Source: Prochlorococcus sp. AG-402-K10 (GTDB taxonomy: Bacteria > Cyanobacteriota > Cyanobacteriia > PCC-6307 > Cyanobiaceae). Taken from it: a stretch of 64,000 nucleotides of DNA. The notes beneath the pieces were generated by a model, which saw only the letters and a program-made list of their open reading frames with translations, did not search any database and was not told where the DNA came from. The stretch covers positions 62,001 through 126,000 of the forward strand of contig QCIF01000004.1 in the NCBI GenBank assembly GCA_003216835.1. The letters are read 5' to 3'. Of this stretch, positions 2,404 through 52,075 are shown piece by piece. The position numbers were made by a program, and so were the translations under genes. The stretch's first letter is position 1. Each line of letters begins with the position of its first letter.

Positions 2404-3114
2404 TTTGAATGTTTAGGTTACTTTTTATTCAAAAACATCCCAGAGATAAAAACAACGTTAAAAATACTCATTTGGAATTTACTTACCAACTATTTAATAA
2501 TTCACATCAAAATATCTCCCTTTGTATTCTCAACGTTTTGATGGCTAAAAGAAAAATAAATTTCAAATATAAACTAATCCTAGAAAAATAGATTATAAAC
2601 CTTGCAATATTTCCTATTAGAACTGGCCTAAAGATCAAAGCAAGTATTTATACCCACACTAAGTATTTTTACTTACTATAATAATTAAAAGCATTTAGGA
2701 ATTGCTTGGCTGGATAAACTCATTCGTTATGAATTTACCTAATAAGTCACGAGAGTTTGCTAGTAGGGATACAAGCAAGCTTTTTTACTATTTTAAGTAA
2801 TGATTATTTTCACATGAAATAGGCAATCTTTTTCTTCCGCATAGATTGTCTTAAAACCTAAAATAGCTCTCAGAAGAATCATTATTTCACCTCAGAAAAT
2901 ATATCAAAAAAAAAATCTAGTTACATTTCATTCTTATTTCTTAAAGCACCCAAATATATTATTTTGCTTAAAGTCTTTTGAAATATTATGGTTTTAAATT
3001 TCAATATGAAATCAAGGAAAGATTTGGATTAATAACGTAAGAATTTATATTGGTCTCTAATTCATTAATATTTTATAATCTAGAAAAAGTTAGTAAAAAT
3101 TAAATAAAGTACTT
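2404..3114. other. gene-poor interval
   Basis: These 0.7 kb are AT-rich with no convincing gene. A 60-residue forward ORF at 2409 has low-complexity composition and no family features. A 23-codon ORF begins at 2729 (MNLPNKSREF) and ends near a poly-T run after AGCAAGC. A small RNA is possible around 2690-2800 but cannot be shown by eye. The promoter of the permease gene must lie at the right end. Confidence 0.4.
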
Positions 3115-6983: not shown

Positions 6984-7241
6984 ATGTCACTACATAATAG
7001 TCCCAATATTATTAAATACTGCGTAATTACTTCTACAGCAGCAATAGTTCTGATAGCTGTTTCTTTGATTCCAGTTTCAAGAAAAGCTGCTTACTGGAAT
7101 CGTTGCCTTGATAAAACTGTAAGGTGGATTAATCAAAACGAAACCGATTTAAAAGGTTGGACTAAAGAAGCAAAAGAAAGTCTTGGTGTAGCAGTATGCA
7201 ATGGTGCTGTTTATGAACCTAAATTTAAAATAATTAAGTAG
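6984..7241 (+). CDS. small membrane-anchored protein, 85 aa
   Basis: One N-terminal hydrophobic helix (YCVITSTAAIVLIAVSLIPV) is followed by a soluble domain with two cysteines (WNRCLDKTVRWINQ and LGVAVCNGAVYEPKF). It could be a membrane-tethered periplasmic protein with a disulfide. A TTGATTGACAGT element, related to the dispersed TTGACAGTCGATC motif of the island, lies about 40 bases upstream of the ATG and may be the -35 region. The family is not recognised. Confidence 0.6.
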   Translation: MSLHNSPNIIKYCVITSTAAIVLIAVSLIPVSRKAAYWNRCLDKTVRWINQNETDLKGWTKEAKESLGVAVCNGAVYEPKFKIIK

Positions 7242-7439
7242 TCTAAAAAGATTAGCCAATATTGCAGTATTTCAAAAGCTCAATAGAAGCTTGGGAAGAT
7301 AAAATTTAAAATTACAAAATCTAGAAGATCTATTAGATTACCTTTTTAATTGTTTAAATATGAATCTAAATTATTCTATTCTTGTATTATTCTTTTATTT
7401 AAGTAAGAATATCAAAAATAAAAGAAACTATATCTATTA

Positions 7440-10400
7440 ATGGCTTTTCCTAATAGAAAATATTTAAGATATAAAACCGTCGAATTAATAGAGGCAGGAG
7501 AAAGTTTTTTAAAGGAAAATAATATTATAGAATTAAAAGAAATTCAATATGAAATATTTTGTAGGAAAAGACCTTATACGGCAAGAAAGCTTGAAGATAT
7601 AAAAACAAAAATAACTTTAATTTTAGAAAATAATTTGAAGGAAAATAAAATTTCTAATAATAGTACTATTAAAAAAGAAGCTAATAATTCAATAGATAAT
7701 TATCTGGAAAATATTCTTCCAGAGAAAGAAGAAGTTGAATTAAATAATAATTATTCATCAATCGAAAAGAAATATATAGAAGAAGATAATAAAGTAATTA
7801 TTAATGAATTACAGGAAGAAATATTTTCAAAAGAATCTTTTATTCCAGAAGGTTTTAATTCAGTAAAAGAGTATTTGCAAGATAAATTAGATAATTCTAA
7901 ATCTTCTAAGGACTATGAATATACAGGAGAGGAAATCTCTGACTATGAAACAACAGAAATTCAAAAAAATATTTTAAAGAGATTTGATTATTGGGCAGAA
8001 CAATTAGTTGATTTAACAGGAAGAAATGATTTGATTTGTTTTAGACAGACTAAAAATTCTTCTTATATTCCAACAGAGGAAATTGTTCAATCTCTTTTAA
8101 ATGGAAATTCTATAAGTGTATCGGAGTTAGAAGAACTTGAAGCAGAAGGTAATATTCAGGGCTCAGTAAAAGAAGCGATTGAAAACTTTGATCAGTTTGG
8201 AATAGAAGTTTTCAGCTTGATATCAGGTTTTGCTATTTGGGAATCTGATCTTTTAAATAATGCATATTCTCCATTACTTTATTACAAGTTATCTATTAAT
8301 AATCCAAAGGAAAGAAGAATAAAAAACATCACATTTTCTATTAAAAATAATGAGCCTGAAATTAATCCAGCATTAGTTCTTTATCTTAAAAGGAAAATGG
8401 GCGAGGAAATTAACGAAGACTTATTAAAGTTAGCTCAAGCCGAGGGAGAGAAAATGGTGAGAGCTTATTTATTAGAAGAAATATCAGATGTGTTGGAATT
8501 TCGGATTGAAGATGGTTATGCGATGAAAAATCTGCGATATTTAAAATTCCCTATGGTGAAGGATCTTTTATCAGCTGGAGATGCGTTAATGAATAATATT
8601 TTAATTACCGCTTTAGCAGGTGACGAAAAATCAATAAGATTTTTAAGAGATGATGTCAAAGAAATTGACATTTCAGAGCCAGACTATATTCCTCCAGAAA
8701 ATGAATTTTTAGTATTAGATGCAGACTCTAGTCAACAATTTGCTATTAATGCAGCGCTAAAAGGACAGAATCTTGTTATAGAGGGTCCTCCTGGGACAGG
8801 GAAAAGTCAAACTATTACAAACTTAATTTCAAGTTTTATAGCGCAAGGTAAAAGTGTCCTTTTTGTCGCAGAAAAAAGACCTGCAATTGATGCTGTAAAG
8901 AAAAGAATTAACAAGGTTGGATTAGAAGATTATTTCCTTGATCTGCATTCAATAGACTCATTTATAAAAAAACCTGCAGAATCATTTAGGCAGCAATTTG
9001 AATTTATAACTGAATATAGAGAGAGAGATGTTCTTCAAAATAATGATTTAACAAGATCCAGAGATATTCTTGTCTCAAGAAGTGATGTTATGAAAAACGA
9101 AAATAATATTTGGAATACAACTTATACGGATGTTCTTAATTTATGTATTGAAGCAAAGAAAGATAATAATCATTTTTATCAAATTGATGAAAATGAAATT
9201 GATAATCTAAATCCAAAGGTATTAAAAAATTTAAAAGATTTATTATATGAACTCTCAAGATATTCAATGAATATATTTGCAGGTCTTGCATTTCCGATGA
9301 GAAAATCATTTCTTGAATCAAAAATTCAGACACCAAATCATGTCCAAACGATAATTAGTTCGATAGACAATATTAAAAAACATCTTGTACAAGTTGATGG
9401 TTGGATATCTTTTCAGGAAAATTGTCGTGCTAATGATAAAGATTCATTAGAAAAGATATATCAACTCGAAAGTTCTATAGCCGAAGTATTAGCAAATGAC
9501 CTTTTAGATTTAAGTAAAGAATATGTCCTTGATAAGGAAAAATTAGATTATCTAAAATTAATTTTTAATAAAAATATAATCTTCAGATGGTATTCATATT
9601 TAAAAGATAAAGAATACAAAAATTATTTATCCATATTTAAAAAAATTATAAATAAAGGCGAAGCTAAGAACTATGAAAATATTTTAAAAGGTTTAAATAT
9701 TTTAAAAAGCAAGAAAATACTTGATGGTAAAAAAATACAAATACTTAAGTTTGAAACAGATATTTTTAAGGAAATAAATGCTTTATTTTCTAATTTGAAT
9801 GTACTTAATCAATTTCTTGATGATGAATTAGATGAGAAATCTAATATTCAAAAATTGAAGAAAACGATTTCAATTTTATTAAAACATAGGGATATCCTTC
9901 CAAATATTATTAAAGTCAATGAATTGTTAAATAGCCTATTGAATTTAGGTTTATCAGAAAATGGCCTATTTGAAGAAATATTAATTGACTTTGAAAACAA
10001 TATAGATTACTCAAAAATATTTCAAAGAGCTTCATTAGCTTGGTGTGATTCCGTAGAAGAATTAATGAGAATTAATAATCCTGAAATTGCTTCTTTTGAT
10101 AGAGATTATCTAGATGATATCGTTGAAGAATTTAGAGAAAATGATCAAAAACATATAGAGACTTCGTATGAAAGAATCAGTACAATTTTGAATAATAATG
10201 CTTTAAAGGCTTTCAATACTTTTCCAAATGAAGCTCAAATTTTAAGACAAGAATTAGCAAGGTCAAGAAAATTTAAACCTGCCAGGGAATTATTTGAAAA
10301 AGTTTCTAATGTTGCAAAAAAACTGAAACCTTGTTGGGCAATGAGTCCTTTGGTGGTATCTAAAGTGATGCCATCTAAGGAACCTTTCTTTGATGTCGTT

Positions 10401-11657
10401 ATTTTCGATGAAGCCAGTCAAATAGTCCCTCACGATGCAATAACTTCAATACTCAGAGGTAAGCAGACAATAGTTGCTGGAGATTCTAAGCAATTATCAC
10501 CAACCTCAACAGCATTTTTTGCCTCTAGTGGTGATAGTGATCTAGGCAATGATTTTAATGATGAAGAATTTAGTGCCGCTGATGAAACTGAGTCACTGTT
10601 AGAAGCAGTTAAACAAGCTTTACCTCCAGTTTATGGAACAAAAACTCTCTTATGGCATTATCGTTCTGAAGATGAAAGACTAATATCTTTTTCTAATTGC
10701 CACCCAGAACTTTATAACAAAAAACTGATAACTGCTCCATCAGTTACATCTACCCCACCTTTTAAATACCATTTAGTTACAGGAGAATTTAAAGAAATTA
10801 GTGGAGTTTCTCCTGAGGCTGAATGTAGAAAGACTATCGAATTAGTCATTAATAATTTAAAAAATAAGCCAGAAGAAAGTGTCGCTGTCATAGCATTTGG
10901 TATAGAACATGCTAGAAGATTAAAAAATGAATTTACTAAACAAGTAGGCGAAGAGAGTGATTTAGCTGATTATCCAGAAGATAAACCTGAAGAAAAATTT
11001 ATTATTAGGCATTTAGAAAATATTCAAGGAGATGAGAGAGATGTTATTTTCTTGTCTACTGGATATGGTCCACAAAATCAAAATAGCTTGAGACAATTTT
11101 TTGGTCCTTTAAATTATGATAATCCTAAATTTTTTGGTCTTAGAAGATTAAATGTAGCAATAACGAGAGCCAGAAAGAGAGTAGAAGTTATTTCTACAAT
11201 AGATCCATATAAATATGATGATAATGAATTAGGTCAACAAGTTAGTAAAAAAGCTTTTATTCAATACCTGAGATATGTAAAAAGTAAAGGATCAGATTTA
11301 GGGGATTTATCAATAAATCAAGTTCCAATGAATCCCTTTGAACAAGATATTTATGATTCTTTGCTAGAAAAAGGAGTTGGTTTAGTTCCTCAATATGGAG
11401 TTTCAGGTTATAGGTTGGATTTTGCAGTTCAACATCCTGAAGAAAAAGGAAGATATGTATTGGCTTTAGAGGTAGATGGTGCATCTTATCATTCTTCTGA
11501 AACTGCAAGAGATAGAGATCGGATTAGGCAATCGCATCTAGAAAAACTTGGATGGAAATTCCATAGGATATGGTCTCAAAGATGGTTCAGGCATAAAGAA
11601 GAAGAAATTGAAATTGCCTTAATAGCTATTCAACAAGCAATTAATTCTCTTCAATAA
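7440..11657 (+). CDS. SF1 DNA/RNA helicase with DUF4011-like N-terminus and C-terminal Vsr/DUF559-type nuclease
   Basis: This 1405-residue protein probably unwinds and cuts nucleic acid. Residues ~180-210 (FDYWAEQLVDLTGRNDL) resemble the start of DUF4011-type helicase proteins. Helicase motifs follow in order: Walker A GPPGTGKSQTITNL (~450), VIFDEASQ (~990), GDSKQLSPT, HYRSEDERLISFSN, NIQGDERDVIFLSTG and NVAITRARKRVEV. The last ~100 residues contain YRLDFAVQH, LALEVDGASYH, RDRDRIRQ and LGWKFHRIWS, the D...E-x-DG-x-x-YH signature of the Vsr/MTES_1575/DUF559 endonuclease fold. Single-gene proteins of this type are often found in defence islands, and it stands alone here. An anti-phage role is inference. 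Confidence 0.82.
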   Translation: MAFPNRKYLRYKTVELIEAGESFLKENNIIELKEIQYEIFCRKRPYTARKLEDIKTKITLILENNLKENKISNNSTIKKEANNSIDNYLENILPEKEEVELNNNYSSIEKKYIEEDNKVIINELQEEIFSKESFIPEGFNSVKEYLQDKLDNSKSSKDYEYTGEEISDYETTEIQKNILKRFDYWAEQLVDLTGRNDLICFRQTKNSSYIPTEEIVQSLLNGNSISVSELEELEAEGNIQGSVKEAIENFDQFGIEVFSLISGFAIWESDLLNNAYSPLLYYKLSINNPKERRIKNITFSIKNNEPEINPALVLYLKRKMGEEINEDLLKLAQAEGEKMVRAYLLEEISDVLEFRIEDGYAMKNLRYLKFPMVKDLLSAGDALMNNILITALAGDEKSIRFLRDDVKEIDISEPDYIPPENEFLVLDADSSQQFAINAALKGQNLVIEGPPGTGKSQTITNLISSFIAQGKSVLFVAEKRPAIDAVKKRINKVGLEDYFLDLHSIDSFIKKPAESFRQQFEFITEYRERDVLQNNDLTRSRDILVSRSDVMKNENNIWNTTYTDVLNLCIEAKKDNNHFYQIDENEIDNLNPKVLKNLKDLLYELSRYSMNIFAGLAFPMRKSFLESKIQTPNHVQTIISSIDNIKKHLVQVDGWISFQENCRANDKDSLEKIYQLESSIAEVLANDLLDLSKEYVLDKEKLDYLKLIFNKNIIFRWYSYLKDKEYKNYLSIFKKIINKGEAKNYENILKGLNILKSKKILDGKKIQILKFETDIFKEINALFSNLNVLNQFLDDELDEKSNIQKLKKTISILLKHRDILPNIIKVNELLNSLLNLGLSENGLFEEILIDFENNIDYSKIFQRASLAWCDSVEELMRINNPEIASFDRDYLDDIVEEFRENDQKHIETSYERISTILNNNALKAFNTFPNEAQILRQELARSRKFKPARELFEKVSNVAKKLKPCWAMSPLVVSKVMPSKEPFFDVVIFDEASQIVPHDAITSILRGKQTIVAGDSKQLSPTSTAFFASSGDSDLGNDFNDEEFSAADETESLLEAVKQALPPVYGTKTLLWHYRSEDERLISFSNCHPELYNKKLITAPSVTSTPPFKYHLVTGEFKEISGVSPEAECRKTIELVINNLKNKPEESVAVIAFGIEHARRLKNEFTKQVGEESDLADYPEDKPEEKFIIRHLENIQGDERDVIFLSTGYGPQNQNSLRQFFGPLNYDNPKFFGLRRLNVAITRARKRVEVISTIDPYKYDDNELGQQVSKKAFIQYLRYVKSKGSDLGDLSINQVPMNPFEQDIYDSLLEKGVGLVPQYGVSGYRLDFAVQHPEEKGRYVLALEVDGASYHSSETARDRDRIRQSHLEKLGWKFHRIWSQRWFRHKEEEIEIALIAIQQAINSLQ

Positions 11658-11782
11658 AAATATTTCTTAGCTAATTATTTCCAACTCTTTCAGTCTTAAT
11701 TAAGCCAAAAATAATTAGAATAATAATTCGGATTAGTGGAAGTATAAATAGGCAGAAAATCAGTAATTTTTTTCCATATTTT

Positions 11783-12049
11783 TTATTTCTTAGGATTATT
11801 CTTTAATAAATTAATTCCAGATACCACAGAGATTATCGAAGAAATACCAATAAATATCGAATAAAATGGCTGCAAATTAAAAATCCCAAAATTACCGGTA
11901 TGCCATTTGATCAACCAAAACGGATCTACTCCAAATAGCTGTAGAAAACTATAGATAGTACCAGAAATAATAGTAACTAATAAAGGGATTGCAGAAAGTG
12001 CTGCTACTTTTCTATGTATTTTAGTTTTATCCATTTCCAAGCTTTGCAT
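11783..12049 (-). CDS. small PepSY-TM-like membrane protein, 88 aa
   Basis: Two hydrophobic helices (ALSAIPLLVTIISGTIYSF and FYSIFIGISSIISVVSG) flank the loop LIKWHTGNFG. The K-x-H-R-x3-A pattern before helix 1 and the WHTG motif between the helices recall the short PepSY-associated TM proteins of cyanobacteria. The ATG comes immediately after the stop of the upstream DUF3721 gene, so the two are translationally linked. An in-frame ATG six codons in (MDKTKIH) could be the true start. Confidence 0.6.
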   Translation of the reverse strand: MQSLEMDKTKIHRKVAALSAIPLLVTIISGTIYSFLQLFGVDPFWLIKWHTGNFGIFNLQPFYSIFIGISSIISVVSGINLLKNNPKK

Positions 12050-16710: not shown

Positions 16711-17349
16711 ATGTGTGGCAGATTCGAATTAAAAACTAAGTTTAATGATTTGCCAAAGATTTTAAAACAAGATTACCCAATTGGACTTGATACTAAATAC
16801 GAGTCTCAGAGTTTGATTAGACCTACTAATCCAGTTCTGGTAATGAAAAATGAAGGGAAGATGAAAACAACCTTTATGACATGGGGGTTTATTTCACCTT
16901 GGGCTAAAGACCCATTTGATAAAGGGAGAGCAAGACCATTTAATGCAAGGTCAGAAACTGTTGAGGAAAAAAAATTATTTAGTGGAAGCTGGAAACACAA
17001 AAGGTGCTTAATACCCGCAAGTGGTTTTTTTGAAAAAAAATATCTTATCCGAAAAGAGAATTATGAAACTTTTTGGTTAGGAGGGATTTGGAGCAAATGG
17101 ACTTCACCTGATGGAGCAGAATTAGAGAGTTGCTGTGTTTTAACAACCGATCCTAATAGTCTCGTTAAACCTTTACATCACCGTATGCCTGTTGTTGTAC
17201 CTGATGGATATGAGGAGCAATGGACTGAACAGGTTAAAGATTCTAATGAATTAAGAGCTTTAAAGCCAATCATGATGGGTTGGTCACCTGATGGATGGTT
17301 ATCAGAAGAAATTAATAAAAAACAAAATGATCAAATGAGTTTATTTTAG
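16711..17349 (+). CDS. SRAP-domain protein (YedK/HMCES family)
   Basis: This family forms a covalent DNA-protein crosslink with abasic sites in single-stranded DNA and so protects them. The catalytic Cys2 is present (MCGRFEL), as are the Asn in RPTNPVLV, the Glu in ASGFFEKK and the His in LHHRMPVVV. The length (212 residues) is normal for a bacterial SRAP protein. The ATG start is fixed by the need for Cys at position 2. A TTGATTGACAGTCAATCTAA element lies about 80 bases upstream. It is not part of an operon. Confidence 0.92.
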   Translation: MCGRFELKTKFNDLPKILKQDYPIGLDTKYESQSLIRPTNPVLVMKNEGKMKTTFMTWGFISPWAKDPFDKGRARPFNARSETVEEKKLFSGSWKHKRCLIPASGFFEKKYLIRKENYETFWLGGIWSKWTSPDGAELESCCVLTTDPNSLVKPLHHRMPVVVPDGYEEQWTEQVKDSNELRALKPIMMGWSPDGWLSEEINKKQNDQMSLF

Positions 17350-39332: not shown

Positions 39333-39557
39333 ATGGACAGAACGCAACAAATAAAAGAAGCTCATCCTTGGCTCAGCTACGACGAAGCAGTAAAGGTTCT
39401 TCTTTATCATCATCAGGGTTCAATATGGATAAAGAAACTCGAAAGAGAAACACTTGAGAGGTCGATGGAAGCATTCACAAAGCTCGTTAAATCAAAGAGT
39501 AAGAAAGCTCTTGAACCCTTCGTAGAGTACGTTCTAAACGTTTACTCCAAGACATAA
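39333..39557 (+). CDS. small helical protein, 74 aa
   Basis: The protein reads QQIKEAHPWLSYDEAVKVLL, then RETLERSMEAFTKLVKSKSK and PFVEYVLNVYSKT. It is soluble, all-helical and fairly basic. Codon use (TAC, GAC, CTC, AAC) is less AT-biased than that of its neighbours, which suggests a different origin, perhaps a phage. The family is unknown. Confidence 0.55.
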   Translation: MDRTQQIKEAHPWLSYDEAVKVLLYHHQGSIWIKKLERETLERSMEAFTKLVKSKSKKALEPFVEYVLNVYSKT

Positions 39558-39576
39558 ATTGACTTTATATAGTACG

Positions 39577-39632
39577 AGTCAATTTAATAACCTCTCTGGT
39601 AGTTGGAATTTCTGGAGGGGTTTCTTGTTTTA
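39577..39632 (+). terminator. terminator after the 74-aa gene
   Basis: AACCTCTCTGG and TCTGGAGGGGTTT form an imperfect hairpin, followed by CTTGTTTT. It lies between convergent genes. Confidence 0.45.
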
Positions 39633-51613: not shown

Positions 51614-52075
51614 ATGACAGATTGTAACTACTGGCTAATGAAAAGTGAGCCTGATGCTTACAGCATAGACACCCTAAAGAATGATGGAGTCACCTTATGG
51701 GATGGGATTAGAAATTATCAAGCTCGTAATTTTATGAGAAAGATGAATATAGGAGATAAAGTCTTCTTTTATCATTCAAACTGCAAACCACCTGGAATTG
51801 TAGGTCTAATGGAGGTGATTGATTTAAATATTATTGATCCTTCTCAATTTGACAAAGAATCAAAGTATTTTGACCCTAAGTCTAAACCTGACAATCCAAG
51901 ATGGGATTGCGTGAAAGTAAAATATCTATTTAAATCAAATAAAAAATTAAGTTTACCTGACTTAAAGATTTTATTTAATCAAGATGAGTTATTAGTAGTT
52001 AAGAAAGGCAATAGATTATCTATTTTACCAGTAAAAAATAATATAGCTAAAATACTCTTAGAAAAAATTAAATAA
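51614..52075 (+). CDS. EVE-domain protein, integration target gene
   Basis: This 153-residue single EVE (PUA-like, formerly DUF55) domain has YWLMKSEPDAYSIDTLKNDG, TLWDGIRNYQARNFMRKMNI, GDKVFFYHSNCKPPGIVGLM and NPRWDCVKVKYLFK. The family binds modified bases in DNA or RNA through an aromatic pocket. It is complete and intact. Codons 5-13 form the recombination core of the adjacent element, so its first codons and promoter are element-derived. It is convergent with the DUF2811 gene (6 bases). Confidence 0.92.
   Translation: MTDCNYWLMKSEPDAYSIDTLKNDGVTLWDGIRNYQARNFMRKMNIGDKVFFYHSNCKPPGIVGLMEVIDLNIIDPSQFDKESKYFDPKSKPDNPRWDCVKVKYLFKSNKKLSLPDLKILFNQDELLVVKKGNRLSILPVKNNIAKILLEKIK

What the first reader, a model, noticed from the sequence alone, without database searches (positions are those of the whole stretch)
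7440..11657. Stand-alone 1405-residue helicase-nuclease, candidate single-gene anti-phage system
DUF4011-like N-terminus, complete SF1 motifs and a C-terminal Vsr/DUF559 nuclease with intact D...E-x-DG-x-x-YH residues are joined in one protein with no partner genes. Proteins of this make-up are enriched in defence islands. In a streamlined genome a 4.2-kb accessory gene is expensive and suggests strong selection.
Basis: partly seen in the sequence, partly recalled or inferred. Interest (0 to 1): 0.58.

Follow-up and report, generated by a model that had tools for sequence, protein, structure and literature searches.

The report
Mobile helicase-nuclease defence gene in Prochlorococcus
A rare ocean cyanobacterium gene encodes one large protein that joins a DNA-moving motor to a DNA-cutting domain; it belongs to a known class of suspected virus-defence proteins, and close relatives ride on an island that inserts at a tRNA gene which in other strains carries other virus-defence systems.

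Summary
Window 7440-11657 is an intact 1405-aa ORF under purifying selection: a divergent DUF4011 region, a complete Upf1-type SF1 helicase and a Vsr-like (MTES_1575) nuclease, with catalytic residues invariant in 12 aligned sequences. It best matches PADLOC's single-gene defence candidate PDC-S37. It is a distant relative of the anti-phage proteins Hhe and ProA, but falls far below their NCBIfam cut-offs.

A close relative has the same flanks without the gene and carries its 87% copy beside tRNA-Thr(GGT). Other orthologs sit in islands flanked by duplicated tRNA-Thr, with an intact integrase. Near-identical integrases at that site accompany Mza-type systems in near-complete genomes and a second PDC-S37 gene; DISARM and BREX genes also occur there.

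New here: the window clade lacks the C-terminal tail of its relatives and carries a ~66-aa N-terminal module. The same module heads a different, Mokosh-like helicase-PLD nuclease in Prochlorococcus and another genus.

Best reading: a mobile, single-gene DNA-degrading defence protein; the phage target is inferred. It is a new variant of a known kind.

The parts
7440..11657 (+). whole helicase-nuclease gene, 1405 aa (PDC-S37 type)
   Evidence: ORF; PADLOC PDC-S37 E=1.6e-213; dN/dS 0.18
7440..7637 (+). N-terminal module, residues 1-66, predicted three helices at low confidence; shared with a Mokosh-like helicase-PLD protein
   Evidence: HMM of 7 orthologs finds G136 at 1.0e-12 and G216 at 6.1e-6; shuffled controls; family search; model
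7638..7973 (+). fast-evolving linker, residues 67-178
   Evidence: dN/dS about 0.44-0.76 against the 85-87% orthologs, very low model confidence
7974..8699 (+). divergent DUF4011-like region, residues 179-420, with W..xLxDLTxRNxLIxF signature at 185-201
   Evidence: Pfam sub-threshold; alignment; hhalign 95%, 3.6e-8
8700..8999 (+). RecA1 first half with Walker A GPPGTGKS (residues 449-456, nt 8784-8807)
   Evidence: AAA_11 3.6e-15; PDB relatives SMUBP-2/Upf1/Sen1
9000..10229 (+). large helical insertion, residues 521-930, between the halves of RecA1
   Evidence: AF2 model all-helical, low confidence; dN/dS about 0.2-0.3
10230..11309 (+). rest of the SF1 helicase core: motif II DEAS (nt 10407-10418), motif VI RRLNVAITRAR (from nt 11142)
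   Evidence: AAA_12 8.6e-9; invariant motifs
11337..11612 (+). C-terminal Vsr-like nuclease, MTES_1575, residues 1300-1391
   Evidence: Pfam 1.2e-32; fold match to I-Bth0305I catalytic domain, TM 0.73 over 96 columns
7295..7439 (+). upstream stretch that is conserved with the gene at its other genomic site, probably its promoter
   Evidence: DNA homology with L028 runs 7295-11665 and stops there
6984..7241 (+). left neighbour, 85-aa generic island gene, not a partner
   Evidence: Similar DNA occurs in strains without the gene, e.g. G144, G065, G137
11783..12049 (-). right neighbour, convergent 88-aa generic gene, not a partner
   Evidence: Similar DNA occurs in many strains without the gene

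Best explanation
The gene is a mobile single-gene defence protein of the PDC-S37/Hhe class. Shown: one protein carries a DUF4011-like region, an intact Upf1-type SF1 motor and an intact Vsr-like nuclease; it is conserved by selection, patchy, and travels between sites, in some strains as cargo of an integrase-bearing tRNA-Thr island at a site that otherwise often holds defence systems. Inferred: the motor loads on DNA with exposed single strands, such as replicating or recombining phage DNA, translocates 5' to 3' as related SF1B helicases do, and brings the nuclease along to cut it. The N-terminal module, linker and DUF4011 region probably sense or dock to a trigger, or restrain the enzyme until infection.
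For: PADLOC PDC-S37 1.6e-213, Hhe 8e-115; NCBIfam ProA 1.9e-205 and Hhe 4e-157. Catalytic residues invariant, including in an annotated Hhe. Purifying selection. Patchy occurrence and relocation. Intact integrase and 96-bp tRNA-Thr direct repeats around the ortholog in L034, duplicated tRNA-Thr in L035. The same tRNA-Thr site holds a C5 methyltransferase with Mza-type genes in 9 of 20 examined genomes, DISARM and BREX elsewhere. Relatives next to PglZ/BrxL, HsdMSR, GmrSD and cas1/cas2. Motor kin are SMUBP-2, Upf1, Sen1, Dna2. Published phylogeny puts Hhe, MkoA and MkoC together in SF1_Upf1 (PMC10925250). A helicase-nuclease defence effector acting on ssDNA-containing replication intermediates has precedent in Druantia III DruE (PMC13192584).
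Against: No experiment. Curated Hhe and ProA cut-offs are missed by a wide margin. Upf1-type helicases also act on RNA, so the substrate is not settled. The window copy itself has no integrase, tRNA or defence neighbour. The mechanism order (sensing, translocation, cutting) is by analogy.
Confidence: 0.75

Rival explanations
1. It protects the island or host against competing mobile elements and incoming DNA (plasmids, satellites, other islands at the same tRNA site) rather than against lytic phages.
For: Carried as island cargo beside an integrase; different islands use one tRNA-Thr site.
Against: Closest named relatives (Hhe, ProA) are annotated as anti-phage; neighbours at the site are BREX, DISARM and Mza genes, which are phage-defence systems.
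Confidence: 0.12
2. It is a DNA repair or replication helicase-nuclease like Dna2, kept for housekeeping.
For: Upf1/Dna2-type helicase plus nuclease.
Against: Absent from over 90% of genomes of the genus, including complete ones; not syntenic; integrase-associated.
Confidence: 0.04
3. It is a function of the mobile element itself (element replication, excision or transfer) that persists as a remnant in the window.
For: Lies between the tRNA-Thr repeats next to the integrase in L034/L035.
Against: The same integrase (87-90% identical) occurs with quite different cargo and no such helicase; the window, L027 and L030 copies persist under selection without any element.
Confidence: 0.05
4. It acts by abortive infection, degrading host nucleic acid after sensing phage, rather than degrading phage DNA directly. 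This is a rival to the mechanism, not to the defence role.
For: Fast-evolving N-terminal part could be a trigger sensor.
Against: No toxin-like regulation or partner seen; a motor-coupled nuclease is more typical of direct processing (inference).
Confidence: 0.2

Closest known systems
PDC-S37 (PADLOC single-gene phage defence candidate)
   Same: Best library match, 1.6e-213, helicase and nuclease covered
   Different: Window clade lacks the C-terminal tail seen in L031, L036, L115 and has an added N-terminal module; its wider clade sits on a long branch, 1.33 changes per site
Hhe (DUF4011-helicase-Vsr anti-phage protein)
   Same: Same domain order and invariant catalytic residues as a Klebsiella plasmid protein annotated hhe, 26% identity
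   Different: About 500 aa shorter, 525 bits against a cut-off of 2000, separate branch of the tree
ProA (NCBIfam NF058533 anti-phage protein)
   Same: E=1.9e-205 over helicase and nuclease
   Different: 685 bits against a cut-off of 1500; 1405 aa against a 1903-position model
Mokosh type II MkoC
   Same: Upf1-type helicase fused to a nuclease; its Prochlorococcus relatives carry the same N-terminal module
   Different: PLD nuclease instead of MTES_1575; no DUF4011
Tycheposons and other tRNA-integrated islands of Prochlorococcus
   Same: tRNA gene, tyrosine recombinase and cargo
   Different: Described cargo is mainly nutrient genes (PMC10872708); the 330-aa integrase here was not shown to be the tycheposon type, and the window copy is outside any such element

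Membership tests
PDC-S37 (PADLOC) | Match to the PDLC05009 profile along the protein | tested here: met
   E=1.6e-213, 710 bits, 3 stretches; PADLOC's own coverage threshold was not available
Hhe | Score at or above the NCBIfam NF042953 cut-off (2000 bits) | tested here: not met
   525 bits
Hhe | DUF4011 + SF1 helicase + Vsr-like nuclease in one protein | tested here: met
   DUF4011 only by profile comparison
ProA | Score at or above the NCBIfam NF058533 cut-off (1500 bits) | tested here: not met
   685 bits
DUF4011 (PF13195) | Pfam gathering score 22.2 | tested here: not met
   13.8 bits; remote homology supported by hhalign
MTES_1575 nuclease (PF18741) | Pfam gathering score 38.2 and intact active site | tested here: met
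   112.3 bits; invariant D1327, E1344, D1346, H1351
SF1 Upf1-type helicase | Complete SF1 motifs, nearest relatives in the Upf1 subfamily | tested here: met
Mokosh (MkoC) | PLD nuclease fused to the helicase | tested here: not met
   No PLD domain in the window protein
Anti-phage defence system | Reduces phage infection in a host | not testable with these tools
   Needs an experiment
Tycheposon cargo | Present in an element with tyrosine recombinase and tRNA attachment repeats | tested here: inconclusive
   Met for orthologs L034/L035; not for the window copy; recombinase type not tested

The most novel reading that the evidence does not exclude
The ~66-aa N-terminal module is a plug-in shared by two different Upf1-type helicase-nuclease defence proteins of marine picocyanobacteria (PDC-S37 type and Mokosh-like), giving both the same trigger or location. 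One integrase family at tRNA-Thr(GGT) swaps whole defence systems (Mza, PDC-S37) in and out of streamlined Prochlorococcus genomes.
Probability: 0.4. Interest if true: 0.68.

Novelty: new variant of a known kind. Interest (0 to 1): 0.5.

Why it matters
The helicase-nuclease make-up is already catalogued. The value lies in the setting: a large defence gene maintained in one of the most streamlined free-living genomes, moved by an island whose tRNA-Thr site carries other defence systems in other strains. That makes intracellular phage defence in Prochlorococcus directly testable, and it points to a shared N-terminal module whose function is unknown.

Tried and rejected
No homolog was found in viral contigs with patterns from the single protein; only with the family alignment. 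Only two weak phage-record matches, unannotated faecal scaffolds. A clean empty site was looked for in G061; the flanks match but 873 bp of unrelated AT-rich DNA lies between them, so it is a gene-less allele, not a scar-free empty site. The 355-aa/151-aa pair beside orthologs was considered as a partner and rejected: 8 of the 14 genomes with the 355-aa gene have no helicase-nuclease next to it, and it is absent from the window's genome. Promoter and terminator scans gave no more than chance. The fold search with the N-terminal model found nothing meaningful (model pLDDT 54). PDC-S37 as a name is not in the searched papers; papers on Hhe or ProA in their own right were not found in the library. 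The original tycheposon paper was not available.

Full report
What is there. The ORF at 7440-11657 (+) is intact and 1405 aa long. Pfam finds an SF1 helicase (AAA_11 3.6e-15, AAA_12 8.6e-9) and a C-terminal MTES_1575 nuclease (1.2e-32); DUF559 and DUF4011 stay below their cut-offs. Aligned with 11 relatives, including a Klebsiella plasmid protein annotated as Hhe, all helicase motifs and the nuclease residues D1327, E1344, D1346, Y1350, H1351 are invariant. The motor's nearest solved relatives are SMUBP-2, Upf1, Sen1 and Dna2. The nuclease part of the model superposes on the I-Bth0305I catalytic domain (TM 0.73 over 96 columns, Foldseek E 0.02), a Vsr-like fold by my knowledge. The models are poor overall (pLDDT 54), so only the RecA and nuclease cores are used. 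The DUF4011 region is real but divergent: profile comparison with the 1670-aa Prochlorococcus cousins gives 95% and 3.6e-8, and one of those cousins has a clear DUF4011 (6e-25). dN/dS against the AG-436-C05 ortholog is 0.18 overall, 0.04 in RecA1 and 0.07 in the nuclease, but 0.32 and 0.44 in the N-terminal module and linker.

What family. PADLOC's PDC-S37, a single-gene defence candidate, is the best match (1.6e-213), then Hhe (8e-115). NCBIfam's ProA and Hhe models match strongly but far below their cut-offs (685 vs 1500, 525 vs 2000 bits). In a tree of the shared C-terminal part the window falls with Prochlorococcus, Synechococcus AG-679-D13 and a Rhodopirellula MAG on a long, fully supported branch, apart from Hhe and from the 1670-aa cousins. 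The deep placement next to the Cylindrospermopsis row is flagged by the program as a possible long-branch artefact. Within that clade, the G003 and Synechococcus proteins begin at about window residue 174 and keep a C-terminal tail that the window type lacks.

Distribution. In 200 Prochlorococcus genomes, nine (own included, one in two pieces) have this type and seven a roughly 30%-identical cousin, mostly about 1670 aa; in the 66 genomes at least 90% complete, four have this type. Absences in draft genomes may be gaps. Copies at 93-94% identity (AG-363-P06, AG-409-A22) share the window's locus. Copies at 85-87% (AG-436-C05, AG-436-O11) lie elsewhere; DNA homology with the AG-436-C05 copy is limited to 7295-11665, the gene and about 145 bp upstream. 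AG-436-C05 (G061) also has the window's flanks at 81-90% DNA identity with no gene between them.

Mobility. The AG-436 copies lie beside tRNA-Thr(GGT) next to aroQ (aroQ named from its sequence by my knowledge). In G161 (L034) and G122 (L035) the gene lies at that tRNA between two identical copies of it, 11.4 and 14.5 kb apart, with an intact 330-aa tyrosine integrase (PF00589 6e-19 for L034) beside one of them. In G143 the integrase is broken and the second tRNA copy partial. In G067 the 1670-aa cousin sits at the same tRNA with an 88%-identical, disrupted integrase. The Synechococcus copy is next to serine recombinases and the planctomycete MAG contig carries a tyrosine integrase.

The slot often holds defence genes. 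I examined the first 16 kb beyond tRNA-Thr in 19 near-complete genomes chosen without regard to this gene (G136 and G022-type genomes had appeared in earlier searches, G136 for its N-terminal module) plus the window's genome. Nine hold a C5 methyltransferase with Mza-type or PDC-M33A-type genes (scored on representative proteins: MzaB 3e-75, MzaC 2e-107, MzaE 1e-76, PDC-M33A 2e-62), and seven of them carry the same integrase (87-90% identity among representatives). Nine, the window's genome among them, go straight into core genes, and two hold something else. In genomes picked through a neighbour gene the site held DISARM DrmABC (L181), BREX BrxBC (L186), a Schlafen/AAA pair (L183) and an RNase-H-like helicase (L188); that second set is biased by how it was chosen. 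Elsewhere, relatives lie next to PglZ/BrxL, HsdMSR and GmrSD in viral contigs and about 3 kb from cas1/cas2 on a cyanobacterial plasmid. No control sites were scanned, so enrichment at tRNA-Thr over other islands is not proven.

A shared N-terminal module. A profile of residues 1-76 from seven orthologs finds two other Prochlorococcus proteins, in G136 (1.0e-12) and G216 (6.1e-6). They are orthologs of each other (52%) and consist of a Upf1-type helicase with a PLD nuclease, closest to Mokosh proteins (MkoA 3e-58, MkoC 2e-37 for G136). An updated profile finds the module in two more genera: a full-length relative of the same protein in G421 and a 304-aa protein with apparent membrane segments in G425. 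Against 10,000 shuffled sequences G136 (45 bits), G421 (27.7), G425 (24.4) and G216 (19.3) all exceed the best shuffle (13.3). Published work places Hhe, MkoA and MkoC in one helicase subfamily, SF1_Upf1 (PMC10925250), so the module occurs on two nuclease-fused lines of related motors. Its function is unknown; a docking or trigger-sensing role is inference.

Verdict. The family is known as a defence candidate; the variant, its travelling habit and the shared module are the additions. Anti-phage activity has not been shown for this protein.

Noticed in passing
L034:5315-16838, L035:3432-17891, L211, L214-L218, L222, L224, L225, L181, L186: The tRNA-Thr(GGT)/aroQ site of Prochlorococcus alternately holds Mza-type, DISARM, BREX and PDC-S37 genes; near-identical 330-aa integrases accompany the Mza and PDC-S37 islands.
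   Followed up: partly
L167:4238-7654 (-), L201:4663-8130 (-), L208:5552-9025 (-): Mokosh-like helicase + PLD nuclease proteins (about 1138-1157 aa) that begin with the same N-terminal module as the window protein.
   Followed up: partly
L209:7162-8076 (-): 304-aa protein with apparent membrane segments that begins with the same N-terminal module.
   Followed up: no
L033, L034, L035, L041, L042, L043, L181-L188: A conserved pair (about 151-aa membrane-like and 355-aa secreted-like protein) recurs beside helicase-nuclease and other defence genes, but also without them (355-aa gene in 14 of 200 genomes).
   Followed up: partly
L041:5473-10464, L042:6579-11591; next to the gene that corresponds to window 51614-52075: A second insertion place for the 1663-1670-aa cousin; another strain (L185) holds a sacsin/TmtA-like gene there and two others (L182, L184) no large gene.
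   Followed up: partly
L181:11925-13274, L183:7627-8976, L186:10955-12304, L220:141-1481, L037:5415-6611, L208:12309-13697: A second, divergent recombinase-like family (about 400-460 aa, barely or not seen by Pfam) at defence-bearing sites, also near a window-type copy (L037) and a Mokosh-like gene (L208).
   Followed up: partly
window 2689-2777 and 39513-39608: Cyanobacterial small RNAs Yfr20 and Yfr13 by Rfam.
   Followed up: no
window 16711-17349: SRAP (SOS-associated peptidase) gene within the same island stretch, about 5 kb from the helicase-nuclease.
   Followed up: no
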